Shown here: positions 35,414-64,000 of the stretch, piece by piece | How positions within the stretch are numbered: the first letter of the stretch is position 1 | How the letters are laid out: the number at the start of each line of letters is the position of its first letter | Source: Liolophura sinensis | Taxonomy: Eukaryota; Mollusca; Polyplacophora; Chitonida; Chitonidae | DNA length: 64,000 nucleotides | Reading direction: 5' to 3' | Assembly: GCF_032854445.1 (NCBI RefSeq) | Contig: NC_088304.1 | Location: 18,699,850-18,763,849 of the forward strand | Notes under the pieces: generated by a model | The model's database searches: none | What the model was told of the DNA's origin: nothing | What the model saw: only the letters and a program-made list of their open reading frames with translations | Translations under genes and position numbers: made by a program

Positions 35414-38400
35414 TTAGCCCACAATGCCAGTGCCCCCCGAAGTGATGGCAGTGACCAAAGCCACAGACGACACGTGTCCGACGAATTGGTTAAACTCTAA
35501 CCGGACTGCGTTGGAATGTTGCTTTAGGATATTGCCAGGCACGTTGTAGACGTAAACATCCCAGAGCGTGTCTGCGTACTGCTTACCCGGCGCATAGAGC
35601 GTATAGCTGGAGGTCAGGGTGTGTCCGTTGACATGGACGTTTTTGGGTTTAGTGTGAGCTGTTCTGTGTACGGCGCTGACAGCTACCCGTAGCCGTGCGT
35701 AGTGGACATGCCCCAGGGACGGGATCGTGACGGTAGTGTCTACGTCGTGACCTTTTACGGGTATCACCATCTCGTTAGAATAGTACGTGTGTTCCTGTAA
35801 AGTGGGGATTGAGGCGAAGTTGTGCCCGGATTTAATGGTGACGTAACACGAAGCCTCGGCTGGGAGAGTAAACATGTTGTTTGTCAGGGTGATCGTCTGA
35901 TCGTTGACCAAGACGGGTGTTTGATGAGAATTAAAATAGAAACATGTAGATTTGGCCAAAGTTGCATGTGTCCATTGTTTGTCGAAGTTTATCTTCACGT
36001 GTGTCGCTGATTGTTGGTAATTGTGGAGAAGCACGTATACTGTTTGGGAATGCGGATCTGCTAAAGCCAGAGGAGAAACTTGTCTTTCTTTGCCATCGAA
36101 GACGCTATCAACTCTCAGAAACTGCTGATTGTAGTTGAAATGGTGCCAGAATTGGAAGGCTTTGGCCGTATGGGTGTAGGAGTGGTCCTGCCGAAAGAGG
36201 CTAGCTCCTGCAAAGTTTTGACTCTTACTCAACAGAAAGGCAATCGCCCTGTCCATGTCGCCACGGAAGTTTTGGTAAGTGAACATTTGGGCATTGTGGG
36301 CAAAGGCGAATGCCCATTCGTTAAAATTTGACTGCGTGTGGGTTTTGACATTGTCTCCGCCAAGCCCGAACTCGCTGACCATCAACGGTACTGATCGCCC
36401 TTTCTTGTGCCAGGCGTAGCTCTCAATAAGGTCAATGACAGCAACCAGACGAGCTTCGTTAATCCCGCTCCACTCATAAGAGTTTCCTTCTTTGTGGAAT
36501 CGGTTGTAAGCGTGGAAAGAAAAGAAGTCCATGTGATCCAATGACATGTCCATGAATTGTTGCAGTCTTTTCCAGAGGCTGAAATCGTGATAATCAGAGT
36601 TGGCTATGTACCCGGTATTTGTCGGCCCACCAACTTTCAACTTTGGGAATTTTTTCTTCAGTTTCCCGGCCACGATTCTGTGGTAATTTACCATAGTGTC
36701 CCAGTCAACGGATTGCCAAAGCGTGCCTGGTTCGTTGATCACCTCAAAGTATGGAGGAATGTGACCACCCGTATGTCGGCTTACAGCTTCCAGTAAGAGC
36801 AACACCATTTCTGCTCCTGCATCCAGGTTGTTGGGGAAATTTCCCCTATGAAGTGAAGTGTTCATCCAATGAGGCCAGTAACTACCTAAACAAAGAGAAA
36901 TGAATATTATAAAACTACTATACTAAAATTTTCCTGGAAAGCAGCCGTCAGCGAATACATACATGTAAGTATGGTCACACAAAACAGTGAGTATTAGAAT
37001 AATTATGCCTTATGACCCGTTCGTGATAACGAATAAATCTGTAGGTAATAACGAATTAGGAACCCTTAACCAGGAACCAATTAATCCGTTAATAGGCAAA
37101 AAAGCAATCCGTCATAACCGAGATAACGATATGAACGAACGGAAGGTTTGTCTTTAGAGGTTACATTAACAGTTAGGATAAAACCCCGAGGTGAATTGAC
37201 AAGAGGCCTAATATCACCAGTTTCCAGTGATTATTCGCCAACTACTACTATCACACTGTTGCCACTGCTCTGGTTTTACAATTAATGCTATAGTCTTTTA
37301 TTTTCCACAAATATGTAACTTTCAATGCTGTGATCCCTAGTTTTCTACAAATTTGTAACTTTCCATGCGGCCTTTTATTTTCTACAAATATGTTACTTTC
37401 CATGCTGTAGCCTTTTATTTTCTACAAATATATAATTATTGGTTTCATGTTGCGGCCTGTGATTGATGTTTTAAGTTGAACATTTTTAAGGAAGACGAGA
37501 GCAACCCGTGGAAAATCACTGCATCCCTCTAATAACATGCATGTATTCTCTTCCCCTTCCCTGTGAAGTAAAGGGATCAAACAAGTATATTTATTTATTT
37601 ATTTGATTGGTGTTTTACGCCATACTCAAGAATATTTCACTTATACGACGGCGGCCAGCATTATGGTGAGAGGAAACCGAGCAGAGCCCGGGAGCAGCCC
37701 ACGACCATCTGCAGGTTGCTGGCAGACCTTCCCACGTACGGCCGGAGAGGAACCCAGCGTCTGCTGGACTTGAACTAAGCGCGCTAACCAACTGAGCCAC
37801 GGAGGCCCCCTCAAACAAGTATAAGTGAGTAAAGTACATGTAATGGCGAGTGCCACCCAGGTAATGTTATACATCTGGCTCTTCAGATACAAACCTTTCA
37901 GCTCCATCACCATGTCCAAGTCAAAGCCATAACCTTTCAAATTGTTTAGAAATGTGCCGGCAGCAGCTTCTTCAAATTTTGGGTTGTTAAAGTACTTTGG
38001 GTCAGCATATCCTTTACGGTGGGGATCTTCTGGTGCCTGTAAGGAGACAAAATGACAAGAAATATGAAATGTTAAAATATATATTCCTTGCTTAGAATTA
38101 AGAAGCTATAATTTGCTGGAGTGTATACATCGTGATCTGAAAGGAAACAAGAAGATTAAGTAAGTTCATTAGGTCAACCGTAGTGATATAGAGGTGTAAG
38201 CTATTATAGTCAAAGTTTGGAGAGTTTTACTCAATACCAAAATACTTCATGTTTTAAATGTTGTTTTGCTTCGAGCAAATAAAAAAGGGGGCCTTCGTGG
38301 CTCAGTTTGTTTGCGCGCTAGGACAGCGTAATGACCAAGGAGCCTCTCACTAATGCGGCCGCTTTGAGTTCAAGTCCACCTCATGCTAGCTTCCTCTCCG

Positions 38401-39090
38401 GTCGAACGTGGGAAAAGGTCTGTCAGCAACCTGCCGATAATCGTGGATTTCCCACGGGCTGTGCCCGGTTTCCACCCACCATAACGCTGGCCGCCGTCGT
38501 ATAAGTGAAATGTTATTGAGTACGGCGTAAAACACCAATCAAATAATAAATAAATAAATAGAAAAAGATTTGGTGTGGTGCAGTTAACACCTATAAACTG
38601 TAATCCGAATCGTTTAACTACTTTTCCTAGCATATTGTGTTGTTTTTGAACTGAATAGAAAAATGGTCAAACGAAGTCATTGCATATTTGGGAAGTCTGT
38701 TAGTAACTTGCCAACGGTATATGGTTTTACTCCTAACTCCGTTTTTCCCATTCTTTAATCTCACATCTGTCGTACAGGTGAGATATTTTTGACTATGTTG
38801 TTAAACAACAATCAATCATTCAGTTTGTGGTATTCAGTTTCACCTACATTTCTGAACCTGTCACCATTCAAGTCACTGTTCAGCCATCTGCCGCTCTCTG
38901 TACCAATGGCCTTATTCTTACTGATGTAGGCGGACCCGTCCAGGCCGTTGTGGCCATTCCAGCGGTCCGCTTCAAAGTGAGTCCGACCTCCCTGAGCTAA
39001 ATATTCCGGGTGGATCGTCACCGTGTAGTCCCCGGCCCCAGGCCATGGCACCAAGGCGAGAAGAAGGCACTTAAAGACAGTCGTCAACAT
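35414..39090 (-). CDS. GH86-A, secreted GH86 beta-agarase/porphyranase-like enzyme, 3 exons
   Basis: GH86 enzymes are retaining endo-hydrolases of agar or porphyran from red algae. Exons: 39090-38848, 38036-37895, 36885-35414; 1857 nt, 618 residues; introns in phase 0 and phase 1. Residues 1-20 (MLTTVFKCLLLALVPWPGAG) form a signal peptide. The N-terminal strand region follows ([28 protein letters not shown]), then a TIM-barrel-like domain with acid/base Glu180 in [10 protein letters not shown] and nucleophile Glu300 in VSEFGLGG, the aromatic-rich DFFSFHAYN, and two C-terminal beta domains ending GHVSSVALV. Spacing of these blocks matches what I recall of bacterial GH86 porphyranase. It lies divergently from GH86-B across 2.6 kb. 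SINE copies interrupt both introns. The exact substrate (agarose or porphyran) cannot be read from sequence. Confidence 0.87.
37290..37445. repeat. Imperfect tandem repeat, about 45 bp x 3-4, in GH86-A intron 2
   Basis: Repeated CTTTTATTTTCTACAAATAT and GTAACTTTCCATGC blocks. Confidence 0.8.
37590..37811 (-). mobile_element. SINE family A, in GH86-A intron 2
   Basis: Good copy from TATTTATTTATTTGATTGGT to the head GGGGCCTCCGTGGCTCAGTT (minus strand), with a short loss near box B. Confidence 0.88.
38287..38561 (+). mobile_element. SINE family A, full length, in GH86-A intron 1
   Basis: Head GGGGGCCTTCGTGGCTCAGT through the (ATAA)n tail; antisense to the host gene. Confidence 0.9.
38690..38815 (+). 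mobile_element. SINE family C, 3' part
   Basis: Shares CTGTTAGTAACTTGCCAACG and the end TTGTTAAACAACAATCAAT with copies at 55667, 57970 and 62480. Confidence 0.55.
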
Positions 39091-40727: not shown

Positions 40728-41036
40728 GTCTTCGGTGGCGTCCGCCTTGAAGTCGGGTGTTCTGGGATCACACCAGGGTGGGGTCATATCAAAGACTTTA
40801 ATAATGGTACTCCGTTAATTCTACCTGGCTTAGCGCGCAGCACTGAGAGGAAAGAGGATTGGTTGGCACGATGTCAGTATAATGTGACTAAGTAGGGTGT
40901 CTTTTCTGGTGTCTTAACTCAGCATAACACAGTTCGGGAGCACTTCAGCGGCATGGGCTCGCCCTGTCGCAAGGAGACACAGTATATGTATACACACCAT
41001 ATGACTCCTCGTCGAATACACACATATATAGTCACA
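40728..41036 (+). mobile_element. SINE family D, diverged copy
   Basis: Shares CGATGTCAGTATAATGTGAC, the cytosine-poor middle and the end GTCGAATACACACA with the copy at 52800-53164. The head contains GTCCGCCTTGAAGTC followed by GGGATCACACCAGG. Confidence 0.6.
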
Positions 41037-41054
41037 AAAGATCGATGGTTTATG

Positions 41055-41201
41055 TGTGGGAAGGTCTGCCAACAACCTACGGATGGTCGTGGGTTTCCCC
41101 CAAGCTCTGCCCGGTTTCGTCCCACCATAATGCTGGCTACCGTCATATAAGTGAAATATTCTTAAGTACGGTGTAAAACGCCAGTCAAATAAATAAATAG
41201 T
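41055..41201 (+). mobile_element. SINE family A, tail half
   Basis: GGGAAGGTCTGCCAACAACC through AACGCCAGTCAAATAAATAA. Inserted next to the family D copy. Confidence 0.85.
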
Positions 41202-41211
41202 CGATGGTTTA

Positions 41212-41657: not shown

Positions 41658-43615
41658 ATGTCTGCGATTCTGGTACTCTGTGTTGTGGCGCTCTGCCCTC
41701 AGTTTACAGTTGGGGAATACACCATTACAATCCACCCAGAATACTTAGCCCAGGGTGGACGAACACGATTCGAGGCCGATCGCTGGGACGGGCACATGGG
41801 CCTGGACACGGCTGGAGAAATCCCCATGAACATAGCAATAGGCACTGAGAGTGGTCGTTGGAATCATCGGGACTTCGCGAATGACGTCTTTGAGAAGGTG
41901 AGATACGCGACGAAAGCTCGGTGTGCCGGTGAAAACCTGGCTACGAGAAGACAAGGATTGGTCGGGTTGAGTTGATTTCCTGTTTCTTGTCACGCGGCCT
42001 TTAAAGTTCACAGGTACTTTTGTGTTTTGGGCGGAGAACGGGGTTCTCAGGACAAGTGGTTAGTGTGCTATCGCAGCACAATGACTCAGGAGCCTGTCAA
42101 AAATGCGTTCGCTATGAGTTCAAGTCCAGCTGTAAGTGGCCTCCGGTGAATAAGTGAAATATTCTTGTGTAAAGTGTAAAACACCAAGCAGACCATAAAA
42201 AAATAAATTATCGCATATCTTTTTCACACAAATAAGTTTCACACAAATAATTTTCACATAAACAAATGTGTACCTACAAAAACAATCAACAACACGGAAA
42301 GATAGGAACGATTGTACATACTATTTGCGTTATTATTCTGTCTGCCCTTGTGTTTGTCACATTAAAGTATAGTTTGGTGAAAGTCGATTCTACAAAGCTT
42401 ATACTCTTAAGCATTTATTTTAGGCGTGGGATTCCGTGTCTCAGTTGGTTGGCGCGCTAGCGCAGCTTAATGACCCTGGAGCCTCTTACCAATGCGGTCG
42501 CTGTGAGTTCAAGTCCAGCCGTACGTGGGAAGGTCTGGCACCAACCTGCGGGTGGTCATGGGTTTCTCCCTGCTTTGCCGGTGTTTCCTCCCACCATAAC
42601 GCTGGCCGCCGTCATATAAGTGAAATATTCTTGAGTTCGGCGTAAAACACCGATCAAATAAATAAATAAATAAATTTATTTTAGGGGTAAGGACAAAAGT
42701 AAAGGCCTGACAAGGTTAATTCTGGTATTAAGTCTTGAAACAGTTTTGAACAACTGGGCCCGGGAATCCAAAAGTAAGCTTTTAAATCAAATTTACATTT
42801 TGAATATAGAGTCGGTTCATGGTTTCAGAACAGGTTCGAACCCAATTCAGTCGACTGATCCAGCGACCTCAAAATCCTTTCTATAGTACAATTGACAAAA
42901 TCTGAAAAATGCTTCTGTTCTTAGAAGCGTTTGTTCCCGAAATAGTGTATAAGCTATTAGTTGGACATATAACTTTGATGAGGGCCGTTTCCCTTGAGCT
43001 AAGAACGTTAAGTGACAACAACAAAACCAATAACTGTTTCTGCTATGAACTAGTTTTCATTACGAATAAAACAAAGCTTTAAAAGAATTAGAGAAACAAG
43101 ATTTGTCTACAGCAACGAGTGCAAGGATTTTTGTAATAGATTAATCGCCGTATGATTGTCCTTATGTCACCCAGGCAACCGAAGACCCACATAAGAAAGG
43201 GTTCCCCGATCCTCACTATTTCGACAATAAGCGATTCGGGGAGCTCGTGGCGAGTAAATACGTGGACAATCTCAATGGGTACGGCCACGATCTGGGCATG
43301 GTTATGGAATTCAAAGGTAAGTTAGAAGACACAACGCATAAAGACCATGTTCTTATGTATGAAAAATAACGAAAATATTTGTGGTTACATGTATCGAATA
43401 ACGTGGAACATAACGCAATGTTTAAAGTGCTAGAATAGAGTTAATCTCATGAAATATTGTTTATTTAATTATATATTTATTTTTTTTGAAGTTTTACGCC
43501 GTACTTCAGAATATTTCACTTTTTCGACGACGGTTATTAGAGTTTTTTTCTTCATTGTTTTTTTCAGTTATTTTATTTATCAGCTGCATATTTGATAAGT
43601 TATATTTTGAAGTAT

Positions 43616-43682
<67 letters not shown>

Positions 43683-45438
43683 TTTTTTTATTTATTTATT
43701 TGATATTCAATTCGATTGTTGTTTTACTTAATTAGGTGAGGTAAAATATGAACTCAATAACTACATATAGCTGCAGAGCTTTCCATGCGAATGCATTAGA
43801 ATAAAATGTCACAGTGAAATTTTAGAAAGTTTCTTTGTATTTGACAGCGGACTTTTTTTTTTCTTCTTCTTTCAGAAACGCATCCAAGATATTTACATTA
43901 GTATCGCCTCAGTTATTTGTCCTTGGATAATATTTATGCAGCGTTAATATGATTTATGTGTTGCAGCCAAAAACTGGCCTCACTGGATGAATACGTCCCT
44001 TCATAAAGGCACATTTCCCAATGATTTACAGGCAGCCACCGACATGGTCTTGTATCTGGTGAAGGCAGTGAGTCGGTTTGCAGGTGGACGGGCACCACGT
44101 TATTTAGAACCAGTTAACGAGCCTGATACCTTGTGGAGTACTGTCGACTGGCAAACCATCATCGATTATAACAGAATCGTCGCTGATAAACTCAGACCAG
44201 TCTTCCCGCATATGAAGTTTATCGGTCCCGCAACCACTGGAATCTCCGAATACGCAGACGTCAAAGACTTCAAATTTTGGAAAAAGATGAAAGATTTTTT
44301 GGACATGGCGTTCATCAAATTGGACATGTGTTCCTTCCACGCGTTCTCTCGCGTGAACGTGAAAAGAGACTCGTCGCATGACTGGAGCGGTAGCAATGAA
44401 GCACGATTTTATGCCGTTGTGGATTTGATTGAAAATTATGCCTGGAAGAAAACAGGGCGTTCCATACCAATCCTGGTTTCCGCGTACGGACTAGCTGGGG
44501 ACAACGTTAAAGTCAACAAAACCACTGACTTTGCTGAGTGGGCTTTTGGCTTTACCCACAATGCCCATATGTTCAACTTTCTCAATTTCCGGGCAGAGTT
44601 AGACAGGGCTATTGCTTTTCTGTTATCGAAAGCTAAACAATTTGCAGGCGCTAGCATTCTTCGTGATAGACATACATACTCACACGTTGCCAAAGTGTAT
44701 CAATTCTGGCACCATTTCAATGACAGTCAAGAGTTTCTTCGAGTGGACAGCGACTTCAATGGAGGCGAAAGACACGTTTCTCCGTTAGCGGTGGTCAACC
44801 CACATACGAAAGAGATAGACGTCATTCTCCACAACTACCAACAAACAACAGAGCAGGTCAACATTAAATTTCATAAGCACTGGACACATTCTTCCTCGGC
44901 CAAATCCACTTGCTTTTTCAGGAATTCCCAGAATATTCCTGTTCTGACTGAAGTAAAGCATATTTCTCTCGTAGACAAAGCCTTTGTCCTTCCAGCAGAG
45001 GGTTCCTGTTACCTCACCATTAAGTCAAATTTCAATTTCGGATCAGCACCAATCGTTCATGAAAGCAAATACTACGCCACAGAAATGGTGATTCCAATTA
45101 GTGATCATTCCGTGGACGCCAAGGTGACGATACCATCCTTGAACGTCCGCTACGCCAATTTACGGATATCAGTTAGCGTCAGCGACAAAACCGCTCAGAC
45201 AAAACCCAAGAAAGTTCTCCTCAACGGACATGCTCTAACATCGAGCTACACACTGTTTGGTCCGGGAAATCAATATTCCGAAACAACGTGGGATGTTCAT
45301 GTCTTTCGCATCCCCACCAACGTTCTGAGACAGCACATCAACGCGGTCCACTTACAGTTCGCCCAGAATGGAGGGTACGTGTCGTCCGTAGTGCTCATAA
45401 CTGGGGCTGTTTCTGGTGATCCAGCCATCATCGGTTAA
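41658..45438 (+). CDS. GH86-B, secreted GH86 homologue with the nucleophile Glu replaced by Ala
   Basis: Exons: 41658-41897, 43175-43316, 43967-45438; 1854 nt, 617 residues; splice phases as in A. Start ATG chosen because it gives a signal peptide (MSAILVLCVVALCPQFTVG) directly before EYTITIHPEYLAQGGRTRFE. The acid/base Glu179 is kept (EPVNEPDTLW). At the nucleophile position it reads VSAYGLAG (GCG, 44482-44484) where A, C and E have VSEFG or VSEYG, and DFFSFHAYN has become DMCSFHAFS. The frame is otherwise unbroken and full length, so selection has probably kept the protein. A pseudoenzyme that binds galactan or has another role is likelier than a dead gene. Retention of activity by another residue cannot be excluded. 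It is convergent with GH86-C. Confidence 0.87.
42041..42198 (+). mobile_element. SINE family A, diverged, in GH86-B intron 1
   Basis: Head GGTTAGTGTGCTATCGCAGC, box-B-like GAGTTCAAGTCCAGC, and the tail GTGTAAAACACCAAGCA; the central block is lost. Confidence 0.75.
42425..42677 (+). mobile_element. SINE family A, near full length, in GH86-B intron 1
   Basis: Head GTGTCTCAGTTGGTTGGCGC to the tail AAACACCGATCAAATAAATA. Confidence 0.88.
43462..43535 (-). mobile_element. SINE family A, tail fragment, in GH86-B intron 2
   Basis: GTTTTACGCCGTACTTCAGA and ATTTCACTTTTTCGACGACG only. Confidence 0.7.
43617..43705. repeat. (TTTA)n microsatellite
   Basis: About 22 tetranucleotide units, probably an expanded SINE tail, inside GH86-B intron 2. 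The Phe-Ile-Tyr-Leu frame read from it is not a gene. Confidence 0.95.
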
Positions 45439-46224
45439 CCGTATGATGAATTCACAAAGGAGTGAGCATAGTCAAATTAGATTTTTCCTCTTTTCCACAG
45501 ACTTGTAACACTGGGAGAGTAATGGACATGAGCTGCCGCACCGCCATTCTCGTTTAATACACAATTCTCTCACATTTATCTTATGATTATAATATCCTGA
45601 TATGTTTAATGTTTAATGTGGTTTTCAAATTTAATTGTAATTTAAATTAGTTGTATTTGTCTTTTTTTTCTTTTTTTTCTATGTTGGCTTTAAAGGCATC
45701 TGTCTACTTTCTTTTTAGGGTTTAGTTGTTTTCAATCAGTAGTCGAAAGCCATAATTGTTGCGTGGTTCTAACATGTTTATGCAGTTATTTGTCCAGAGT
45801 GATAGCGAGAAAAAAATGTAGGAGGTGTTTGTGATTACCTGTTCCCGATTCAAGCCAATCGGTTCATTCACTCCATTCTAGTGATGATTAGATCAAATAT
45901 ACTGTAAACACTATACACTGAAGACCAGTCTGCTAATCAACAAAGTAGGCAACGGATCGTGACCGAGCAGCTAGGAATCATGTATTTCAGATGATAACAG
46001 GTTTTGGTTCAGTTTCTGTCTCGGACAAAAGAATCCTCCAGGTAAGATAATTATCATTCAGCCACGGTTGAATAATAAAATATCACTAACTACCACACTC
46101 TGTTAATCTTCTACTGATTTATACGATTTATATTATATCAGTCAGAGGACTTCCTATACTAGAAAAATATTAATATCAACAAGAATTTAAATTTAACTGC
46201 AGAAAAAAAGCTTTATATTGTGCA
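45439..46224. other. 3' flank of GH86-B; no gene recognised
   Basis: AT-rich with pyrimidine runs. An AATAAA at about 46075 could serve as a distant polyadenylation signal. Confidence 0.4.
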
Positions 46225-46640
46225 GAAAAGGATTACCCCGTGAAAAAAACCTTTACATCACGGAGAACACCTTATTACTGCGGAGAAAAACCTTTCTACA
46301 GCGGAGAAAACCTTTCTACAGCGAAGAAAACCTTTCTACAGCGGAGCAAATCTTTCTGCAGAGGAGAAAAACCATTGCACCGCGGAGAAAACCTTTACAT
46401 CGCGGAGAAAACCTTTACATCGAGGAGAAAACCTTTGTATTGGAGAGAAAACTTCTTACCGCGGAGGAAAGTTTTGCACTGCTGAGAAAGGATCGCACTT
46501 CCAATAAAATCTTTCTACCGATGAGAACACCTTTACACCGCGGAGGAAACATTTACACCTTGGAGAAAACCTTTCAACCTTGGAGAAAACCTTTGTACCT
46601 TGGAGAAAACCTTTGCACCTTGGAGAAAACCTTTTTCTAT
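46225..46640. repeat. Minisatellite, 20-bp unit, about 21 copies
   Basis: Unit GCGGAGAAAACCTTTACATC and variants, on the plus strand. An inverted-orientation set of the same unit lies at 46930-47075. Confidence 0.93.
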
Positions 46641-46929
46641 TTGATCACAACTTCTGTTTGTCTAGAAAAAGATTTTCACCACAAACATTTTTCATTGTTT
46701 TTCAAAGTTTGACTGCTATTATCCATTTTGTCTACTTTGTTTGCTTTTATCCATTTTTTCCGTGACTGCGTTAGTTCGTTGTATGTGCTATTAATCCTTT
46801 GTTCTTAATGACAATGTTTAAGAATAAAACTTACCAATCGTTTTAAATTAGTGGAAAAGCTGAACTGAACTAACGCAGACGTAAGAGCAAAAGATACAAA
46901 AATGATAAACACAGCCAAAACTTGGAAAC

Positions 46930-47317: not shown

Positions 47318-47463
47318 AAGGTCTTCCAGCAACATGCAGATGGCCGTGGGTTTCCCCTAGGCTCTGCCCGGTGTCCTACCACCATAATGCTGGCCGCTGT
47401 CGAATAAGTGAAATATTCTTGGGAACGGCGTAAAACACCAATCAAATAAATAAATAAATAAAT
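47318..47463 (+). mobile_element. SINE family A, tail half
   Basis: GGTCTTCCAGCAACATGCAG to ACCAATCAAATAAATAAATA; tRNA-like head absent. Confidence 0.85.
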
Positions 47464-47586
47464 CTTTAATGCAACTTAAATATATAGTTCAACGCTTTAG
47501 GGATTTCTCCAGTCCGTGAGCTGGTGAGCAACTTTTGATGGTGGTCTCTAAAATGAGATTTCAAAAGATACACTATCACGGTTTAA

Positions 47587-47984: not shown

Positions 47985-50151
47985 TCAACCGATGATGCTC
48001 CCATCTCCTGGTACATTCCCTGCCACGATGGCCACGGTAGAGACGTAACCGCCCTTTTGGGCAAATATAAGCTGAACCGCGTTGGAATGCTGTTTCAAGG
48101 TTCTGGTAGGCACCTCAAATACGTAGACATCCCACAACGTTTCCATGTATTGCCCGCCTGGTCCAAACTGCATGTAGCTCGATGTGACTGTGTGACCATT
48201 GACTTGGACTGTCTTGGGTTTAGTTTCGGCCGTTTTGTCGCTCATGCTAACGCCTATACGGAGAAATGCGTATCTCACAGCGCCCAGTGAACGTATGTTG
48301 ACAGTGGTGAGGACTGTGTGACTGTTTATAGGTATTACCATTTCGGTAGCATAGTAGGTGTGCTCATGGACGGTGGGGATAGTTTTGAAGTTGTATGTGG
48401 ACTTGATGGAGACGTAGCACGAGGCCTCAGCTGGAAGGGTAAAAACGTTATCCTCGAAGGAAATGGTCTGGTCCTCTAACAAAACAGGTGTTCTATGCGA
48501 ATTCAGGTAGAAACAGGTGGAACTGACCGAGGGAGCATGCGCCCAGTGCTTCTCAAATTTGATCTTCACACGTTCTGGAGTTTGATGGTAACTGTGAAGA
48601 ATGACGTCTATCTCCTTCTTGTGTGTGTTGACCAGGGCCAAGGGAGAAATGCGTCTTTCGTCGTTGTTAAATTCGCTGTGCACGCGTAGGAATTTATGGC
48701 TTTCATTGAAGTGATGCCAGAACTGATATGCTTTCGCAACGTGAGTATAGTCGCCATGTCGAAATAAACTTGCGCTGGCGAAATTAACACTCTTACTCAA
48801 CAGAAAAGCGATAGTTCTGTCTATATCGCCCCGGAAGTTCAAGTAAGTGGACATGTGGGAATTGTGCATATAAGCAAACGCCCATTCGTCGAAATCTGAC
48901 TGTGTGTCAATCTTCACATTGTCACCCCCAAGACCGTATTCACTGACTATCAGGGGAACAGATCGCCCTTTCTTGTGCCAGGCGTAGCTCTCAATTAGGT
49001 CAATGACGGCGACCAGACGAGCTTCGTTAATCCCGCTCCACGCATGCGTGTCTCCATTTTTGTGGACGTGATTGTAAGCATGGAAGGAGAAAAAATCCAG
49101 AAGGTTCAAAGACATGTCCATGAAATCTCTGAGTTTCTTCCAGATCTTGAAATCATGACGATCTGCATTTTGTATGGCTCCTGTATTAGTCGGCCCACCG
49201 ATTTTCATGGCAGGAAACTTCTTTTTCAGTTTCGTGACAACGAGTTGATGATATTTAATAATGTCTGACCAATGAACAGTAGCAAAGAGAGTCCCTGGTT
49301 CGTTGATGACTTCAAAGAACGGTGGGACGTGACCACCTGTAAAGCGACTAACGGCTTCCATCAACAGAAGAATCATGTCCGCCCCGGCGTCCAGGTTGTT
49401 GGGGAACGTACCTTTGTGGAGCGACGTGTTCATCCAGGGAGGCCAATTCTTCTCTGAAAAGAGAACATATACAAATTACTCTCACACCTGACAACCATAC
49501 ATATGTAGGCGTCAAAGCAGACATTCGTCAACCAAAAGTACTTTCAGAGTCAATAATGGTAAGACCAGTTTCCAGAACATAAACGTTTAGCATAAAAAAA
49601 CTAAAGAACTAAGAAAGTATATAAAGTGAGATATTAGACTGTGTTTGTCCAAAAGGAGACAGTCAACGGTGAAGATGGACAGACCCCAAAAATGCTCTAG
49701 GCGAACGGATTAAATCAATATGGACAACTGATATTCTGGCATGGTACACGATTTCAACACTGACTTCATAGAACACACCTTGTGTCTTTCCAACACCACT
49801 GAAAACTGTTGACTGCTTCTGTCTGCATGATTCGGTACTGTTTTCGAACTTTGTACACTTTCGTAGTCATTTGGTGTTTTGTGTTATACGTCGTTTTGGG
49901 ACGTAGCCTTGCGATCATTGACGTCCTTATTGGTTAACGGCTGGCATACGAATATCTGTTTCGACGCATAGATTCACATCGTTTGTCATGCATGTTTATA
50001 AGTGGTCGATAATCAAATAATCAAATATGTACCTCAGTTCCATTTTGATTACAGATATTCATATATCCAAGGTGGCAATCTAATTCATTCAGGGAATATA
50101 ATAGAAAGCGGAATTAGACATAGGTATAATGCATCTTGTTGAACGAAATCT

Positions 50152-50401: not shown

Positions 50402-52409
50402 AGTCAACTGTTTTCAAACAGTTGACTTCTTCTTTTTTTAATGAATCCGTCCTAATTTATTGTTTTATTGACTGTTTTAGTTCTGATGTTATTATTGATC
50501 CAGAGAGTGCATTATAGTTGACGGCTGGCATACGAATGTCATGTTCCAGAACCCTATACATTAGTTTGGATTGTTAAACGTGTATGTATATAGGAGTATC
50601 GCCCACCTTTCAGTTCCATGACAGTATCCAGGTCAAGGCCATAACCCTTGACATTAGCAAAATACTTGGTTCCAACTTTTCCCTCCATTGTGGGGTTTAG
50701 AAAATATTTTGGATCGGCATAACCTTTGCGATGAGGATCTTGTTGTGCCTGGAACAATTTGCATGCACAATTGTCTATCATAAAAAGATAGAGACATGTA
50801 CAGGCATTACGCGGAATAAATCTGACTCTTACATTGGTTGAGTAATTCAATTATTTATCACGAAATTATACGTTTTGTTATGTTTACTTTATTTGCAAAA
50901 AGAAACCAAGATTTGAATATACCCTTTTGCCCGCGGTGACGATGGCATAGTTGTTTACCAGCTTATGTACTATATAGCGTAACAATCAAGCAGCCAATAA
51001 CTATATAATAAAAAAACACTTACAGCACAGAACATCCAACCATAATGTTGGCTACGTCGTATAAGTGTAATACTCTTAAGCACGGCGTAAAACATCAATC
51101 AAATAAATAAATAACAGAAAGTAAAGCGAGAGCAGCAACGGTAATGTGATAGTTGACAAATGGTCACAGGTAACCGGTGAAACACGGCCTCTTTGTCAAT
51201 TTACCTGAGTTAGAGTTTTACTCTAACTGTTTATGTAAATGCACATACAATGAACTAAACAGTTATAGTAACTGTAGCCTAGCAACGAAACGAACTAATA
51301 TGAAAGAATACAACTCGCTTAGCATGTCGATTGCCAAGTAGACAAGTATTAGTGAAGGGTTTATCTTCTAAGCAGGAATGTGTAGGCTATACTCAGCCTA
51401 CTTCCTCCGGTAATAAAAATTCGAATGGAATTTACCAATAAAATACAAGCGAGAACCAAGGAGCGAGAATAAAGCCTGAAAAAGGTATATTCCGCTCTTG
51501 TCAGATCTCCAGGAACGCGCGGATAACTACAGCTCAACGATCCAGAAAAAAACCGCTTCGGGAGCGGTAGATCCAGGGTCGATCCTGGGTCGAGTCACAC
51601 CTAAGACCTTAAAGGAGAAAGTTGCAACTTCCTCGCTTGGCTTTCAGGGATGGAGAAGGGGATAGTGCAACCACTAACAGTTCAATGGCTCGGGAGGGGC
51701 GCCTCAGTGAAGCAGCACTAGATAAAACGGCGGTGGAAATCGGTCCTGCAACAAGGAGGGACATTACATGCACTCTAAGGACTCCTTCATCGTCATATGA
51801 CTGAAAAATTGGTAAGTCCGACGTTAAACCCCCAAGCGCTCACTCACTCAAACAAAAAATAGCTTAAGGCTTGCATTTTTCAAACGAAGACGGAAGAAGC
51901 GAGATCTCCGCGGTGGTGGAATACGTCAAATTTACACTATGGACTCAAGTAAGAAAAGGCTTAAAAAAATCATATCTCAGAACAAAGCATATTCCCTTCT
52001 CATCTAATCTCATAAAGTGGGCAAAAAGAACGACAATCTAGTGTGACATGCACATGGCCTTCTCTGAGATTCATACATGAACGTTTGAGCTATTCCCTAA
52101 AACAGCCGAACTTCAGTCTATCATAAACTTTTGTGGCTCATATTCCCTCTGTTGTATTACGTTTTCGAATGTTCCACCTGAAAGGTCTTGGTGGATCCAA
52201 CGACCGCTTTCCGTTCCTATCGCCTTGCTTTTCTCGAAAAGCCCGGGACTGTCCAAACCATTATGCCCATCCCAGCGGTCTGAGTCAAACTGCGTCCTAC
52301 CTCCCTGGCTAAGGTACTCTGGGTGAATAGTAACGGCGTACTCTGCCGACAGGAGCTGAGTCCCGAATATACAGGTGACACAAAACACTAGAATCACTAC
52401 CGTTGACAT
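47985..52409 (-). CDS. GH86-C, secreted GH86 beta-agarase/porphyranase-like enzyme, 3 exons
   Basis: Exons: 52409-52161, 50748-50607, 49453-47985; 1860 nt, 619 residues; splice phases identical to A, B and E. Signal peptide in residues 1-21 ([21 protein letters not shown]), then [20 protein letters not shown]. Acid/base Glu182 lies in [10 protein letters not shown] (codon 49301-49299) and nucleophile Glu302 in VSEYGLGG (48941-48939). DFFSFHAYN and [10 protein letters not shown] are conserved. C-terminal beta domains end [11 protein letters not shown]. It is the closest relative of GH86-A in the window: HKKGRSVPL and [15 protein letters not shown] are the same in both, and the region around them is highly similar even at DNA level. 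Intron 2 holds two long TA tracts; intron 1 holds SINE copies. Both catalytic residues are present, so activity on red-algal galactan is the simplest expectation. Confidence 0.88.
50153..50440. repeat. Duplicated (TA)n tract with a perfect palindrome, in GH86-C intron 2
   Basis: Two (TA)n runs (50153-50230 and 50316-50394) are each followed by an A-run and AAGTCAACTGTTTTCAAA (50238-50255 and 50401-50418). The second is extended into a perfect 13-bp inverted repeat with a 2-bp loop (50401-50413 / 50416-50428). Confidence 0.92.
51038..51113 (+). mobile_element. SINE family A, tail fragment, in GH86-C intron 1
   Basis: ATAATGTTGGCTACGTCGTA to AACATCAATCAAATAAATAA. Confidence 0.8.
51140..51260 (+). 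repeat. Unclassified dispersed repeat, copy 1
   Basis: GTGATAGTTGACAAATGGTC, ACGGCCTCTTTGTCAATTTACC and ACTGTTTATGTAAATGCACA match the copy at 56505-56625, and the start matches 53683-53720. All are on the plus strand, whereas the host genes face opposite ways, so this is a mobile repeat rather than shared intron ancestry. Confidence 0.6.
51549..51845 (+). mobile_element. SINE family B, head-truncated, in GH86-C intron 1
   Basis: Box-B-like GGGTCGAGTCACACCTAAGA, the central block in family order, and the end AAGCGCTCACTCACTC. Confidence 0.82.
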
Positions 52410-53210: not shown

Positions 53211-53476
53211 CATTACGTCGCCCCCCCACCTTCCTTACTGATCCTCAGAAGCAGAAAATCGCCGATCACGCCGATATTTAACCATTAACAGTGTATTCTC
53301 CCCTAGTGTGTCGCTTTGTCCATGCACAAAGTATTTTAGCAGTACTGGCAAGTACTAGTACGTAGAAGTCTCTCATCACCGGAGGTTAGGGTGCCAAATC
53401 TATGTCCGGTCTACAGGTTTTGCAGTTTTTAAGTTGGGTCAGAAAGTTTATCGAATTTTAATATTTTTAACTTTTT

Positions 53477-53640
53477 ATGCTAGACGCCATAAACCATTAC
53501 ACCGGAGGTATACAGCCGCCCTATTTTGAAGTCATGAACGAATCAGATGCTCTATGGAAGTATATATCGCGGGACACTTATAGTTCCACAAAGTTTTGGC
53601 CCAGAAGTCTTAAGCTGGAGCCCACGATTTAAAAGTAAGA
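53477..53640 (+). pseudogene. GH86-D1, relic of a GH86 third exon
   Basis: Reads MLDAINHYTGGIQPPYFEVM, then NESDALWKYISRDT, closely matching GH86-E (MFDAINHYTGGIHPPYFEVM, NEPDAQWKYMSWET). The NEP proline is now serine (53543-53545). After TYS the frame shifts, FHKVLAQK can be traced in another frame followed by a stop, and homology then ends. About 160 bp of an exon normally near 1470 bp survive. It is closest to E, so it is probably a copy lost after an E-type duplication. Confidence 0.8.
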
Positions 53641-53682
53641 GGTGCAAAAGAATATGACATGAAGAGTATAACTGGAGCGTCG

Positions 53683-53760
53683 AAGACAGTGTGATAGTTG
53701 ACCTTCTGTCAGTTTAAATTGCAACTTAGGCGCCCTCTAACGTCACAAAAGTAGCTAAAT
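53683..53760 (+). repeat. Unclassified dispersed repeat, partial copy 2
   Basis: Starts GACAGTGTGATAGTTGACCT, like 51140 and 56505, then diverges. Confidence 0.4.
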
Positions 53761-54282
53761 AGTGAATACTTGCTGAGTACTAATGATGTAGCACAAATTA
53801 AGGTCACCTTTTGTTTGATCTGAAAAAACAACTGTCGATCAGATCTGTAATCATCTGCAAGAACTTCACTGATTTACAGGAATTAACATACATACCAAAC
53901 GTGCCAAAAGACTGTGATCTAAGAGGATCTCTGAAAATCCTTTACAACCATGTAGGGAAGCAACTAATTTGTTGATCCTTAACCATTCATATTTACTAAT
54001 TTATCTAAGGTTTACAATGTATCTGCCTCAGTGTAATCAAGGAACCTCTACCAGTGAAACGAGCCAAATGGGTCATTTTTAGAGATGGCGATTATGGCAT
54101 GCCTTTTGTGTAAGACAAAGGGTTTGGCGAGGGATCAATAAAATAAAAGGAACGATGAGAAAGTAAACGCCCGAGTCTAGTTAACTTATTCACCGAACAT
54201 TTCAGGTTTTATCTGAAAAGAGCCCGAATTACTAGTTAACATTTGTTTACAATCAAATGTCTCTTATGAGCGCTAAAAGTTG
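53761..54282. other. No gene recognised
   Basis: AT-rich spacer between relic D1 and the 64-bp array. Confidence 0.4.
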
Positions 54283-55500
54283 CTTGAGTTGCTCAAACAT
54301 AGGTTAAATATACCTCATCTGTGCTGATATTAATATGAACATAATAGCACAGTTGCTCAAACTTAGGTTAAATATCCCTCATCTGTGCTGATATTATTAT
54401 GAACATAATAGCAAAGTTGCTCAAACTTAGGTTAAATATCCCTCGTCTGTGCTGATATTATTATGAACATAATAGCACAGTTGCTCAAACTTAGGTTAAA
54501 TATCCCTCGTCTGTGCTGATATTATCATGAACATAATAGCACAGTTGCTCAAACTTAGGTTAAATATCCCTCGTGTGTGCTGATATTATTATGAACATAA
54601 TAGCACAGTTGCTCAAACTTAGGTTAAATATTCCTCGTGTGTGCTGATATTATTATGAACATAATAGCAAAGCTGCTCAAACTTAGGTTAAATATCCCTC
54701 ATCTGTGCTGATATTATTATGAACATAATAGCAAAGTTGCTCAAACTTAGGTTAAATATCCCTCGTGTGTGCTGATATTATTATGAACATAATAGCAAAG
54801 TTGCTCAAACTTAGGTTAAATATCCCTCATCTGTGCTGATATTATTATGAACATAATAGCAAAGTTGCTCAAACTTAGGTTAAATATCCCTCGTCTGTGC
54901 TGATATTATTATGAACATAATAGCAAAGTTGCTCAAACTTAGGTTAAATATCCCTCGTGTGTGCTGATATCATTATGAACATAATAGCAAAGTTGCTCAA
55001 ACTTAGGTTAAATATCCCTCGTGTGTGTTGATATTATTATGAACATAATAACACAGTTGCTCAAACTTAGGTTAAATATCCCTCATCTGTGTTGATATTA
55101 TTATGAACATAATAGCACAGTTGCTCAAACTTAGGTTAAATATCCCTCGTCTGTGCTGATATTATTATGAACATAATAGCAAAGTTGCTCAAACTTAGGT
55201 TAAATATCCCTCGTGTGTGCTGATATTATTATGAACATAATAGCAAAGTTGCTCAAACTTAGGTTAAATATCCCTCATCTGTGCTGATATTATTATGAAC
55301 ATAATGGCACAGTTACATCAAACTTAGGTTAAATATCCCTCGTCTGTGCTGATATTATTATGAACATGATAGCACAGTTGCTCAAACTTAGATTAAATAT
55401 TCCTGATAAACACTAATTTTATTGAACCTATTAGCAAAGTTTCTCAAACTTATGTTAAATATTCCTGATAGACACTAATATTATGAACCTATTAGCACAG
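54283..55500. repeat. Minisatellite, 64-bp unit, about 19 copies
   Basis: Unit: GCAAAGTTGCTCAAACTTAG, GTTAAATATCCCTCGTCTGT, GCTGATATTATTATGAACAT, AATA. Copies are very uniform in the middle and worn at the right end. It lies between the two GH86 relics. Confidence 0.95.
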
Positions 55501-56079: not shown

Positions 56080-56905
56080 TTGTTTGCTATGCCAATTATG
56101 ATGATGACTGTCATGCCAAACGCTTGTGATTACATCGTGACGGTTTGCCCGGAATACCACGCACAGAACCCAGGCAAAGCAATCGGAGCTGCAAGAGGAC
56201 GATGGATGAACAGAGACGTCAGTGGCGACCTGTTCAGACGGGTATGTTTTGTTTTTGAAAAACAGAGAGAATTTCAAGGGTGATTTTTGTACGATTAGAT
56301 GGTGTTCTCAGGATCTTACTTTAATGAGACCTCTTGGTTGTTATCGCCGAATGGGAACTGTCGCAGTAAAACTCTAACTGTCAAATTCCTCCCTATAAAT
56401 AGTAGTTTAATTTGGTTTTGAACAGTTCTGAAATTCATAATGTGGTCGACATTAAGTTGAATATAACTGAAGACATACAGCATAGAGCGTAAAACCAGAG
56501 CATCGACGACAGTGTGATAGCTGGCAAATGGTCACACGTAACCAGTGAAATACGGCCTCTTTTCGGTTTACCTATCAGTGTTTTATACTAACTGTTCATG
56601 GCAAATGTACAAAGAGTAACAATTTACACCTAACGCCATGACTTAAGTAGAATTAGGTAAAAAAAATGCACTGATATTAATTGCAATTTCTAGTCGTCAC
56701 TGGTCTAGAAATACTCAAATTGCTGTTGTGTCTCATTGAACATATAAAGGCGTGCTGAGCTGGAAGCCATATTAGTTTTTAGGTCCCCGAAATTCCTCAC
56801 GGCAGGGGCTACGTGGATCCTAATTATTTCAACAAGGTGATTGGAACTTTCATGGACGACATTAGAGGGTACGACGGAGATTTGGACATCGTCATGAAAT
56901 TGTAG
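56080..56905 (+). pseudogene. GH86-D2, relic of GH86 exons 1 and 2
   Basis: Exon 1 relic (about 56080-56241) encodes a short hydrophobic start, then DYIVTVCPEYHAQ, and jumps to KAIGAARGRWMNRDVSGDLF. Compared with A-E it lacks about 25 residues around the FEADRWNGHNGLD block, and IGTESGRW has become IGAARGRW. A donor-like GGG|GTATGT position is kept. Exon 2 relic (56783-56905) follows an intact TTTTAG acceptor: VPEIPHGRGYVDPNYFNKVI, then GYDGDLDIVMKL and a stop where others continue into the phase 1 junction. It is shorter than the invariant 142 nt. No third exon was found to the right. Confidence 0.82.
56505..56625 (+). repeat. Unclassified dispersed repeat, copy 3
   Basis: GACAGTGTGATAGCTGGCAA, TACGGCCTCTTTTCGGTTTA and ACTGTTCATGGCAAATGTAC; the best match is 51140-51260. 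It lies in the intron of relic D2. Confidence 0.6.
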
Positions 56906-57969
56906 GGTTTTTATTTGGCATCATCACAAAGGTTGTTACATTAGACAGCCGTTATTATTTTCAAAGTTTAAGCCCCAGACGGGCGCTCTCAAATGACATA
57001 GATTTCACAAGTTTCTCCATTTCTTAGATGTTAAAAACAGAAGTCTGTTGTTGGCTAAAAGAAGCACAGCTTTCTCCGTTCTAACAAAACGATTTTCGTA
57101 TGCTCAGGTCTGGTTCCCTCAAGAGAGAACTCAAATGGCCTCAAAACTAACTGAAACCACATCGTTTTCGGCTGTGAAAGTCTGCATCAGTGCTGTTGTT
57201 CCACCTTCATCTGGTTCAGGCGGAGTACACCTATATACTACAAGGCTAACATATCCAAGATTCATCTGCTTACATTTTTCTCGGGGCCTTGGTGGCAATG
57301 TGATTTTGATCTTGATTTGGTGACAGTTCTTGATCCAGATTTCAAGGACAACGTCGATATCAAATTTGACACCGAATTGCATATTGCCGACCTCATTTAA
57401 CCTGTTGTGAACCTGTGGCTAAAAATAGGCCATGTCACTCCTTACTCTATCAGACTGTAAACTATCAGCTTTAGCCATGTAAAATGAATGGTTTTGGCGC
57501 TGTTGTCTGGTCTTCCCATCCCGCACTCTGACGTCAGACGATGGAGAATTCACCAGTAATTCGTCGAAGGTTTCCTCCACCCATGATTGTGGCCTTAAAC
57601 AACAATTTTTCGTTGCTGTATCCCTCAAAATCATCGTTCTCTTGTTAGCTGTCGAGATTGATGTTTCGAATTCAGTTTTTTTTTTCCTATTTTTTTCTTT
57701 TTTGTCTCACTAACCTGATTGTCGCCGTACAGGAGCAAAATGCTTGAGTTTCATGTTTAATTTCAATCAAATCGCTAGATTACAGGAGGATGGGGTTCAG
57801 ACCCAGCATTGTAGAGAGAATTTGTAGATCTCCTTCTCTCAGTGCTTGGGACATCTTGGTCACAGCCTTGCCCCTTCCCCTCTTTCTCAGCGTGACCGAT
57901 TGCGCCGTCTAAGGCGCTTTGAAGTCTACTTGGCAACCATGAAAATCATATGCATATTTGTACTTATCA
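56906..57969. other. No gene recognised
   Basis: Several short frames on both strands without recognisable domains. No GH86 exon 3 signature (WPHWMNTS, NEP, VSEYG) was found here. Confidence 0.45.
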
Positions 57970-58218: not shown

Positions 58219-58249
<31 letters not shown>

Positions 58250-58440: not shown

Positions 58441-58565
58441 ACCAATTCCAGAATTGTCACCGAAGCGCCAGCGTTAAATGGAAGGTATTGATAAAGTAAA
58501 AGTTAAACGGTATTGTCGTGGAGATGTTAAGTATATGGATGGATGCTCCTCCTCAAAGTGAATTT

Positions 58566-58840
58566 GGGGGCCTCCGTGGTTCAGTCGGTTAGCACGCTAG
58601 CGCAGCGTAATGACCCAGGAGTCTCTCACCAATGCGGTCGCTGTGAGTTCAAGTCCAGCTCATGCTGGCTTCCTCTCCGGCCGTACATAGGAAGGTCTGT
58701 CAGCAACCTGCGGATTTTTCCCCCGGACTGTGCCCGGTTTCTACCCACCATAATGCTGGCCGCCGTCGTGGTATAAGTGAAATATTCTTGAGCACGGCGT
58801 AAAACACCAATCAAATAAATAAATCAATCAATCAATCAAA
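58566..58840 (+). mobile_element. SINE family A, full length
   Basis: GGGGGCCTCCGTGGTTCAGT through AAACACCAATCAAATAAATA; well preserved. Confidence 0.9.
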
Positions 58841-58844
58841 GTGA

Positions 58845-60600: not shown

Positions 60601-60694
60601 ATTGTTTATTGTTTGAAGACAAATTACCAGGACAATTTTCACACAACACAACATGGGATCTGAATCAAAACTCACCCGACATAGATGGTAAATG

Positions 60695-60700
60695 TTTATT
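60695..60700 (-). promoter_or_regulatory. Likely polyadenylation signal of GH86-E
   Basis: AATAAA on the minus strand, about 65 nt after the stop codon; a second lies at 60605-60610. Confidence 0.45.
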
Positions 60701-60765
60701 GAAGATAAGTAAAACATGTTAATTATGAAGAAAGTAAGAAGAGTTTTCGCACAATTTGGACAGTT

Positions 60766-63700
60766 TTACCCAATGATGCCTGGATTGCCATTTACGTCCC
60801 CAACGACAAGTGCCACGGATGACACGTAACCACCGCTTTGAGGGAACTCCAATCTGACAGTGTTCGACCCATGGTTCAAAACGTTGGTAGGAACGTTGTA
60901 GATGATGACGTCCCACAGCGTGTCACTCTGATGCCTGTTGTTGTCGAACAAGGAGTAATGGTCGTTTATGCTGTGTCCATTGATATGGACAGACCTGGGG
61001 GTTGTGTGAGCTCCTTTGTTTTTGTTGCTAACTCCGATACGGAGAAAAGCTGAATGATGGTTGCCGCTGTTGGGAAGATTGACGGTGGCTTGGGCTACGT
61101 TGTTGTTGATGTGGTACACCTGATCTGTGGCGTAGTACGTGTGCTCTTCGATTGTCGGAGTCCTTCCAAAGTCGTGTCCAGTTTGGAAGGTGTAGAAACA
61201 AGTTGATTCTCCTCTTAAAGTGACTTTACCATCGTTAAGATGAATCGATTCGTTCTCTTTGAAGACTGGGTTTCTGTTGTTTTCCAGATAGATACAAGTT
61301 GCCCAACCGGCCGTTGGCGTTAGCCATCTGTTGTTGAAGTTCAACTTTACCGTAGTTGAGGAAGAGTGATAGTTGTGTAGAAGTACGTATACCTTCTTAG
61401 TGTGAGGATCCGCCATGGCTAGTGGGGAGATCGTCCTCTCCGCCCCGTTATGTTGACTGTCCACTCGCAAGAACTGGTGGTTCCAGCCGAAATGCTTCCA
61501 GAATCGGTAACATTTCGCCACGAATGTCTCAGCATGGTGAGTATCGAAGAGGCTTGCTTGTTCATTACCAAAACTGTCATGACTTAGGATAAAGGCCACA
61601 GCCGATTCCATGACGCCGCGGTGGTTGAGGAAGGTGAACATGTAAGCGTTGTGCAGGTAGGCGTACGCCCACTGGCTGACTGCGTTGGGAGTGTGGGAGT
61701 CCACGTCAAGGTTACCCAAGCCGTATTCGCTGACGATGAGGGGTACAGAGAAACCTCTCTTGTGATGAGTATAGCTGTGAACAAGGTCAATTACGGCCAC
61801 CAGGCGAGCTTCGTTACTACCAGCAAAACTGTGAGAGCCACCGTGGGAATGGAAAGAGTTGTAAGGGTGAAAGGAAAAGAAGTCCAAGTGGTACAAGGAC
61901 ATGTCCAAAAACTGCTTGATCTTTTTCCACACGCGGAAGTCATTTTTATTCGCGCTGGTGATGGCCGATGTATACGTAGGTCCACCGACTTTCACACCGT
62001 GGACTTTTGCCTTTAGCTTCTGGGCCATGACTCTGTGGAACTCTATGACAGTTTCCCACGACATATACTTCCACTGAGCATCTGGTTCGTTCATGACTTC
62101 AAAATAAGGCGGGTGTATACCTCCAGTATAATGGTTTATGGCGTCGAACATCTGGGCCGCCATATCAGCCGCTGCATCGATATTGTTAGGGAACTGACCG
62201 CCATGGTGGGAGGTGTCCATCCAATGAGGCCAGTCTCCATGAGCTAGAGATAAAAAAGACATTGTTTTTGAAGCTTCTGCTGCTAGTGGTTTGCAAGAAG
62301 ACCTTCAGTGACATTATAAACTTTGTGGGTTCATTGAAAATGTGTTAAAAGACTGGCAAAATTCATGTACCCCAATCCCTGTCATAGCCTTCGTGTCAAT
62401 AATGTGGGCGTTTGTGCAGCCTAACGTTCATTGAGGGCCACTTTTCCCGACTAATATCGTGTGTACATGCGTAAGTGTAAAACTTAGTCAGTATCTTGCC
62501 AAAGGTAGGTGGTTTTACCTGGGCATTACGGTTCTCCCACTCATGAAACTGAACGCCTTTTCATGAGAGAAAAATTCATGATTATGATGTTAAATCAAAT
62601 AAATAACTTTTTTCTTACTTATTAGTAATGTAATTTTAATTGACGCATGCGCAACTTCCACTAATGATGAAATGTACGTGATAAAGCATTACATTCGGGG
62701 CCATCCTTGCGCGAATACTACAGGTGTAAACCTCGTCAACTTATGACCATGAGTACAATTATTTAACTTGTATTGCGGATCAAGGCAAATGTGACAACCA
62801 CTTTTATCTGCTTGCTGCCGCTATTCCATAAAAAATTTAATTTTATCTAGACGTCGAAAACAGACATTACTATAGTAATCGTCAACCATAATAGACGTTC
62901 CTCGTCAATGATGGCGAAATCAATTTTCAAAACAACGTCCAGCATGAACTACAAATACATTAATAATATATATAGAGTGAGAAGTTAAGACAGGTTCACA
63001 TAAAGAGACGCACTCAACAGATTTCCATGAAATCCATGGAATGCTCTTCGCATAAAAAATTAATCCGCATCCGAATCGTGGTACAAGCCAAGTTTAAAAG
63101 TTATCGTTTAGCAAAGCTTGTATCTCAGTTGCGCTTTAAATGCAACTGTCCGTATATCCAGTGTTGTGATTGCATTCAAACACGATGAAAATACGGCTCC
63201 TAACCCCGGTTAAGCGAACATAGACACGATGCTATTCATCCATACAAACCTCTAATGACCATCACGGTGTCCAGATCTTTCCCATAGCCGTGAATATTTT
63301 GCAGGTACTTTTCAGCCACTTTTTTCCGCATGTTCTGGCTGTTAAAATGGTTGGGGTCTGCATATCCTCTTTGATGAGGATTTTCAGGAGTCTGGAACAA
63401 ATAAGAAATCATCCTACATCCTAATTCAGAGCAAAATCACCATCGGAAACTCTTTCTCGCTTGGATTAATTTTTGAACACGAAATGGCATAAGAATGTGA
63501 GAAACTCTACTAATGTTAAATCTTAAAATAAAAACGGTCATGTGACATGCTATCTGTCAAAACTGTATCTTTGGGGCCGGCAACCTTGTTTATTACATAG
63601 GATTTCTGATAGGTGATCGGTAGTGTCAGCAAACGTTTTCTAACATTTTTGACAAGCCACATGATACAGTATGACTTTCTTCACCTTTAGCGACAAAAGA

Positions 63701-64000
63701 GTTCGAACTCGAAAGTCTCCTAAGATGTCGCGGAATCTAACACATTTATCATCAAAAATATGTCTTACGTTTTTGAAAGTATCACTGTTCAGATCTCTGT
63801 TCATCCATCGTCCACTTTCGGTGCCTATGTCCTTGTTCTTGGCGATTTGCCAGCTCTGATCCAAGCCATTATGGTTATCCCATCTGTCCCCCTCGAAGTG
63901 CGAGCGTTTGTTCTGGAGAGGTACTCGGGGAAGATAGTAACTGTGTAGTCACTGATGGCTGGCGCAGCGGCCAACGCCAGAAGGAACGTGCACAATAGAA
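60766..64000 (-). CDS. GH86-E, secreted GH86 enzyme, 5' end outside the window
   Basis: Exons: beyond 64000 to 63769 (partial), 63391-63250, 62243-60766. Exon 2 is again 142 nt and the phases match A-C. The visible 5' part gives a signal-peptide core LLCTFLLALAAAPAIS, then DYTVTIFPEYLS. The start codon lies just past the right edge. Acid/base Glu is in EVMNEPDAQW (62088-62086), nucleophile Glu in VSEYGLGN (61728-61726), with DFFSFHPYN and SGYVSSVALVVG-like end present. It is the most divergent of the four. Exon 1 needs a one-base shift after EYLS to continue as QNKRSHFEGDRWDNHNGLDQ, so the assembly lacks one base or the gene is newly damaged. The long intact exon 3 favours a sequence error or a recent allele. 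Confidence 0.84.
62480..62606 (+). mobile_element. SINE family C, 3' part, in GH86-E intron 2
   Basis: CTTAGTCAGTATCTTGCCAA, AGGTAGGTGGTTTTACCTGG and the end ATGTTAAATCAAATAAATAA. Confidence 0.6.

What the first reader, a model, noticed from the sequence alone, without database searches (positions are those of the whole stretch)
35414..64000. Cluster of intron-bearing GH86 (agarase/porphyranase-family) genes in an animal genome
Four full or near-full GH86 homologues and two relics lie within 29 kb. Seen: signal peptides, conserved blocks EVINEP, VSEYG, FFSFHAY and GxVSSVA in order, GT-AG introns, SINEs in the introns and an ordinary mitochondrial methyltransferase gene on the same contig. Known: characterised GH86 enzymes are, to my knowledge, bacterial and cut agar or porphyran. 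Inference: bacterial gene capture followed by local expansion for digestion of red algae. This is the strongest candidate for an undescribed system in the window.
Basis: partly seen in the sequence, partly recalled or inferred. Interest (0 to 1): 0.88.

Follow-up and report, generated by a model that had tools for sequence, protein, structure and literature searches.

The report
Ancient seaweed-enzyme gene cluster in chiton
A chiton (a grazing marine mollusc) carries a cluster of its own intron-bearing genes for a class of seaweed-gel-cutting enzyme best known from bacteria; the family is shared with mussels, pearl oysters and abalones, and one copy in the cluster appears to have kept its shape but lost its catalytic residue.

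The parts
38848..39090 (-). gene A exon 1 (start codon, hydrophobic N-terminus, first barrel strand)
   Evidence: with exons 2 and 3 equals P0002 residue for residue
37895..38036 (-). gene A exon 2
   Evidence: AG acceptor, GT donor
35414..36885 (-). gene A exon 3 (most of the barrel with E180 and E300, two beta-sandwich domains, stop)
41658..41897 (+). gene B exon 1
43175..43316 (+). gene B exon 2
43967..45438 (+). gene B exon 3; GH86 fold predicted, nucleophile lost
44482..44484 (+). gene B codon GCG (Ala) at the place of the GH86 catalytic nucleophile Glu
   Evidence: sequence; column counts; nucleophile identity from PMC5849685 (E322Q mutant), passages
52161..52409 (-). gene C exon 1, missing from the NCBI model P0001
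50607..50748 (-). gene C exon 2
47985..49453 (-). gene C exon 3
63769..64000 (-). gene D exon 1, start cut off by the window end; reading frame broken within the exon
63250..63391 (-). gene D exon 2
60766..62243 (-). gene D exon 3; passes Pfam cut-offs for both GH86 C-terminal domains
53471..53688 (+). relic: exon 3 fragment closest to gene D (79% over 34 residues), with stops
56080..56247 (+). relic: degenerate exon 1
56783..56914 (+). relic: degenerate exon 2

Best explanation
A tandem family of secreted glycoside hydrolases of family GH86 in the nuclear genome of the chiton Liolophura sinensis. An ancestor of chitons, bivalves and gastropods gained a GH86 gene, most likely from a bacterium; it acquired introns and a molluscan cysteine pair and was kept and multiplied in chitons and abalones. 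A, C and the D lineage keep the two catalytic glutamates on an (alpha/beta)8 barrel followed by two beta-sandwich domains, and should cut beta-1,4 bonds of red-algal galactans (agar, porphyran or funoran type) in the gut by a retaining double displacement (mechanism recalled for GH86). B keeps an open frame and the predicted fold but lacks the nucleophile, so it is probably a non-catalytic, perhaps sugar-binding, paralogue. Shown by computation: membership, gene structure, single molluscan clade in the sampled tree, Ala at the nucleophile of B, region-specific speed-up of B. Inferred: one old gain, bacterial source, gut secretion, substrate, role of B.
Against: Pfam GH86-domain models stay below their curated cut-offs in exon 3 of A and C (22.5-24.9 bits against 26.2-27); C instead passes the broad Cellulase model (25.8 against 23.5); only D passes both, B one. 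NCBIfam gives nothing for the four proteins tried. No donor lineage, and a sister rather than nested position, leave bacterial origin unproven; one search also warned of long branches meeting between four bacterial rows and the molluscs. Rates differ elsewhere too: with outgroup P0008, C is faster than A in the barrel (30/11, p=0.004), and B is faster than A in the N-terminal part (17/3, p=0.003, outgroup P0003) (no correction for many tests). No expression or activity data were seen. Columns of the residues tied to agarose/porphyran choice in bacterial GH86 are empty in the molluscan rows, so the substrate cannot be read across.
Confidence: 0.72

Rival explanations
1. Recent bacterial capture in the chiton lineage followed by local expansion.
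For: The four genes and relics lie within 29 kb, and the GH86 proteins with solved structures that were matched are bacterial.
Against: Of 67 hits seeded with molluscan sequence, the 65 named ones come from chiton, mussels, pearl oyster and abalones; sampled rows form one clade grouped largely by class; best bacterial identity 21-25%.
Confidence: 0.05
2. GH86-like enzymes were present in early eukaryotes or animals and lost almost everywhere except molluscs; no horizontal transfer.
For: Molluscs are sister to the 40 bacterial GH86 rows kept when rooted with GH39-like proteins; no donor found.
Against: No non-molluscan eukaryote is named among the hits of three searches of 5.8 billion proteins; this would need very many losses. 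The searches need shared five-residue words and two of them scored only the 8,000 or so best candidates, so distant copies may be missed.
Confidence: 0.15
3. The molluscan clade no longer serves algal digestion but cuts an endogenous sulphated galactan (egg or mucus polysaccharide).
For: Filter-feeding mussels and a pearl oyster also keep it; columns of the bacterial substrate-choice residues are empty.
Against: The greatest multiplication is in grazers: 58 of 67 hits are Haliotis, and the chiton has four copies in this window plus P0003.
Confidence: 0.15
4. Gene B is merely a decaying pseudogene, or its Ala codon is a sequencing error.
For: One base change would account for the Ala codon; B has 10 deviations at 65 conserved columns (A 2, C 4, D 1 of 57); no B protein was among the hits. 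A recent loss of function would leave few marks: in the simulation 34% of runs at 0.02 and 3% at 0.05 neutral changes per site kept an open frame.
Against: 617-codon frame and splice sites intact; 0 of 300 simulated runs stayed open at 0.187 neutral changes per site, the non-synonymous length of the B branch; the C-terminal domain is not faster than in A and C; Tyr255, kept in 64 of 64 and 41 of 41 rows, is Phe in B, so an isolated base error does not explain all (His197 is Asn too, but so it is in one abalone row).
Confidence: 0.25

Closest known systems
BpGH86A beta-porphyranase, Bacteroides plebeius (PDB 4aw7)
   Different: 17% identity; bacterial. The molluscan cysteine pair is absent from the 41 bacterial rows sampled (4aw7 itself was not a row)
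BuGH86 agarase, Bacteroides uniformis (PDB 5ta0/5ta1/5ta5)
   Different: Columns of T82 and residue 396 are empty in all 64 molluscan rows; the latter is empty also in 8 of 41 bacterial rows (12 of 41 in a second alignment)
Aga86A_Wa GH86 agarase (PDB 8h97)
   Different: 20% identity in the structural alignment, bacterial
Database entries 'beta-porphyranase A-like', 'beta-agarase-like', 'funoran endo-beta-hydrolase-like' of Haliotis, Mytilus and Liolophura
   Same: Same family; A is identical to one of them (P0002), C extends another (P0001)
   Different: Names given by the source; among the hits no gene B and no exon 1 of C
GH39 and GH51 enzymes (related barrels)
   Different: Matches end near residue 480 of A, before the second sandwich; distant barrel proteins (GH39-like is my label) score 18-34 bits against 44-192 for bacterial GH86 rows

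Membership tests
GH86 (agarase/porphyranase) | Full-length sequence similarity to characterised GH86 | tested here: met
   four GH86 sequences, E 7e-44 to 3e-26 over profile positions 74-610 (168-612 for 4aw7)
GH86 (agarase/porphyranase) | (alpha/beta)8 barrel plus two beta-sandwich (Ig-like) domains | tested here: met
GH86 (agarase/porphyranase) | Catalytic acid/base Glu and nucleophile Glu | tested here: met
   A, C and D: both present
GH86 (agarase/porphyranase), gene B as an enzyme | Catalytic nucleophile Glu | tested here: not met
   Ala at 44482-44484. B is a homologue of the family, not a member by catalysis
GH86 (agarase/porphyranase) | Curated Pfam cut-offs for PF18206 and PF18040 | tested here: inconclusive
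   Exon 3 of each: D passes both, B passes PF18040, A and C pass neither
GH86 (agarase/porphyranase) | Endo-hydrolysis of agarose or porphyran, retaining mechanism | not testable with these tools
   Needs expressed protein
GH39 | Closer profile match to GH39 than to GH86 | tested here: not met
   GH86 sequences at E 7e-44 to 3e-26, GH39 xylosidase 6uqj at 0.008; GH39 entries rank below the GH86 entries
Horizontally acquired animal CAZyme | Nested within a bacterial clade | tested here: inconclusive
   sister to, not nested in, the sampled bacteria; bacteria as one clade only 88
Horizontally acquired animal CAZyme | Resident in the animal genome | tested here: met
   Introns, dispersed repeats, SpoU exons, 36.6 Mb contig

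The most novel reading that the evidence does not exclude
Molluscs own an ancient branch of GH86, predating the split of chitons, bivalves and gastropods, with a remodelled minus-2 subsite and so possibly a substrate choice not seen in bacteria; and in the chiton one tandem copy (B) has become a stable secreted pseudoenzyme that binds galactan without cutting it, for example as a lectin, substrate presenter or decoy.
Probability: 0.3. Interest if true: 0.75.

Novelty: new variant of a known kind. Interest (0 to 1): 0.62.

Why it matters
A paper on abalone gut microbiota (PMC5870069, passages seen) looks for red-algal polysaccharide enzymes, GH86 included, in bacteria such as Polaribacter. The hits here hold 10 to 17 GH86 cluster representatives for each of four abalone species, and the chiton has at least five copies (and P0003). 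If these animals make the enzymes themselves, the division of labour between grazer and gut bacteria needs another look and can be tested directly. The family would be an old and repeatedly multiplied gain of a bacterial-type enzyme by animals, and gene B offers a natural counterpart to the laboratory nucleophile mutant of GH86.

Tried and rejected
The genome search did not complete, so copy number in the rest of the genome, the place of P0003 and a wide survey of prokaryote GH86 could not be done. dN/dS on branches could not be computed because synonymous sites are saturated; relative-rate tests were used instead. Reading substrate from BuGH86 residues failed: the columns of T82 and residue 396 are empty in the molluscan rows, and residue 396 of the fetched agarase (WP_141982262.1) is Glu, not the Met named in the paper. 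Intron positions could not be compared with other molluscs, since I fetched no molluscan DNA beyond the window; starts of partial Haliotis entries do not settle it. Contamination was rejected (introns, repeats, long contig). The tree used 34 molluscan rows: the four window genes (D as exons 2 and 3) and 30 of the 67 hits; P0001 and P0002 stand as C and A, fragment P0067 and the other 34 Haliotis hits were left out. The 41 bacterial rows come from one seed search that scored only 7,994 candidates; one of them, P0108, has no Pfam match, scores only 44 bits and was left out of the rooted tree. The label GH39-like for the outgroups was not tested. The plasmid search gave six bacterial records at 22-24% identity. 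Literature: ten searches; no listed title or abstract start describes an animal GH86, but two searches were too broad to list in full, most listed papers were not opened, and the library lacks most subscription journals. Two chiton genome papers (PMC11068029, PMC12005716) were searched for terms only: no 'porphyran' or 'agarase' in the main text held.

Full report
What is there. The window comes from the chiton Liolophura sinensis (Polyplacophora): gene A translates to NCBI protein P0002 of that species with no difference, and exons 2 and 3 of gene C equal P0001 after its first residues. A genome of this species was published as L. japonica and renamed in a correction (PMC11068029, term search; PMC12441733, whole text); that the window is from that assembly is likely but was not checked. 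Four GH86 genes lie in 35414-64000, three on the minus strand (A, C, D) and one on the plus strand (B). Each has three coding exons; intron 1 is phase 0 (A-C) and intron 2 phase 1, at homologous places, all with GT-AG ends. A, B and C are open over 617-619 codons. D is cut by the window end and its exon 1 changes frame; its exons 2 and 3 are open and differ at 12 of 539 residues from P0003 of the same species, which is therefore probably a further copy outside the window. NCBI's protein for C lacks exon 1, and no protein for B was among the hits. Three degenerate fragments lie at 53471-53688, 56080-56247 and 56783-56914.

Catalytic residues. In one alignment of the 4 window genes, 64 other molluscan rows and 41 bacterial rows, the acid/base Glu (E180 of A) is Glu in all 109. 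The nucleophile Glu (E300 of A) is Glu in 64 of 64, 41 of 41 and 3 of 4; gene B has Ala. The column is that of BuGH86 E322, whose Gln mutant was made as the inactive nucleophile mutant (PMC5849685, passages). B also has Phe for Tyr255 (Tyr in 64 of 64 and 41 of 41) and Asn for His197 (His in 62 of 64 and 41 of 41; one abalone row has Asn, one Gln). Over 13 conserved barrel columns B has 3 departures; of the other 108 rows one has 2, 18 have 1 and 89 have none.

How old. Two protein searches seeded with molluscan sequence returned 67 proteins: 58 from Haliotis, 3 from Mytilus, 1 from Pinctada, 3 from Liolophura and 2 without a name. A third search, seeded with a verrucomicrobial GH86, returned 41 rows; those with an organism name are bacterial, many have none. 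In the tree of 34 molluscan and 41 bacterial rows the molluscs are one side of a branch, support 100, length 1.32; chiton rows group together (93, with one unnamed row), bivalve rows likewise (99, with one unnamed row), abalone rows in two lineages, one of them deep. Support for the chiton group falls to 61 in the smaller rooted tree. Rooted with 12 GH39-like proteins, molluscs (100) are sister to the 40 bacterial rows kept (88). The best bacterial identity of A-D is 21-25%. A single gain before these classes parted is the simplest account; a bacterial donor is inferred from distribution, not shown by nesting. The named molluscan hits come from four genera, so many losses in other molluscs are likely, but absence was not tested species by species.

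What it probably does. A, B and C begin with a strong hydrophobic stretch. All four window genes and 63 of 64 other molluscan rows carry a cysteine pair (443/475 in A; the other row has a gap), found in 0 of 41 bacterial rows; this suits a protein passing through the secretory pathway, though a disulphide was not shown. Bacterial GH86 enzymes cut agarose or porphyran, the choice resting largely on the minus-2 subsite (PMC5849685, passages). The columns of T82 and residue 396 are empty in all 64 molluscan rows (the second also in 8 to 12 of 41 bacterial rows), so agar, porphyran, funoran or another galactan remain open. Red-algal digestion is the likeliest role given that chitons and abalones are grazers (recalled), but no expression or activity was seen.

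Novelty. The family is not unknown to databases: names such as 'beta-porphyranase A-like' exist. In ten literature searches no listed title or abstract start describes an animal GH86; two of the searches were too broad to list in full and the library is open-access only. What appears new is the coherent picture: an old molluscan branch, the chiton tandem cluster with a shared intron plan, the molluscan cysteine pair, and an intact copy without its nucleophile.

Noticed in passing
window 30363-33314 (+): A 983-codon frame with retrotransposon gag, reverse transcriptase and a weak aspartyl protease match; described only, not taken further.
   Followed up: partly
   Followed up: partly
window 54159-55418: Tandem array with a 64-base unit, about 95% alike in its middle, lying between the GH86 relics.
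   Followed up: no
window 38287-38561, 41061-41207, 42058-42210, 42426-42676, 47318-47464, 58566-58833: Dispersed SINE-like repeat copies, several inside GH86 introns.
   Followed up: partly
P0067, Mytilus coruscus 'CHST1': A predicted protein joining a sulphotransferase-like part with a GH86 fragment; may be a fused gene model.
   Followed up: no
window 46197-46712 and 8273-9448: Repetitive reading frames (units of about 20 bases at 46206-46670; repeated FRHNS-like frame).
   Followed up: no
L022, Bacteroides uniformis plasmid pBUN1: Residue 396 of this agarase is Glu, while the structure paper names M396 at the minus-2 subsite; numbering or strain difference.
   Followed up: partly
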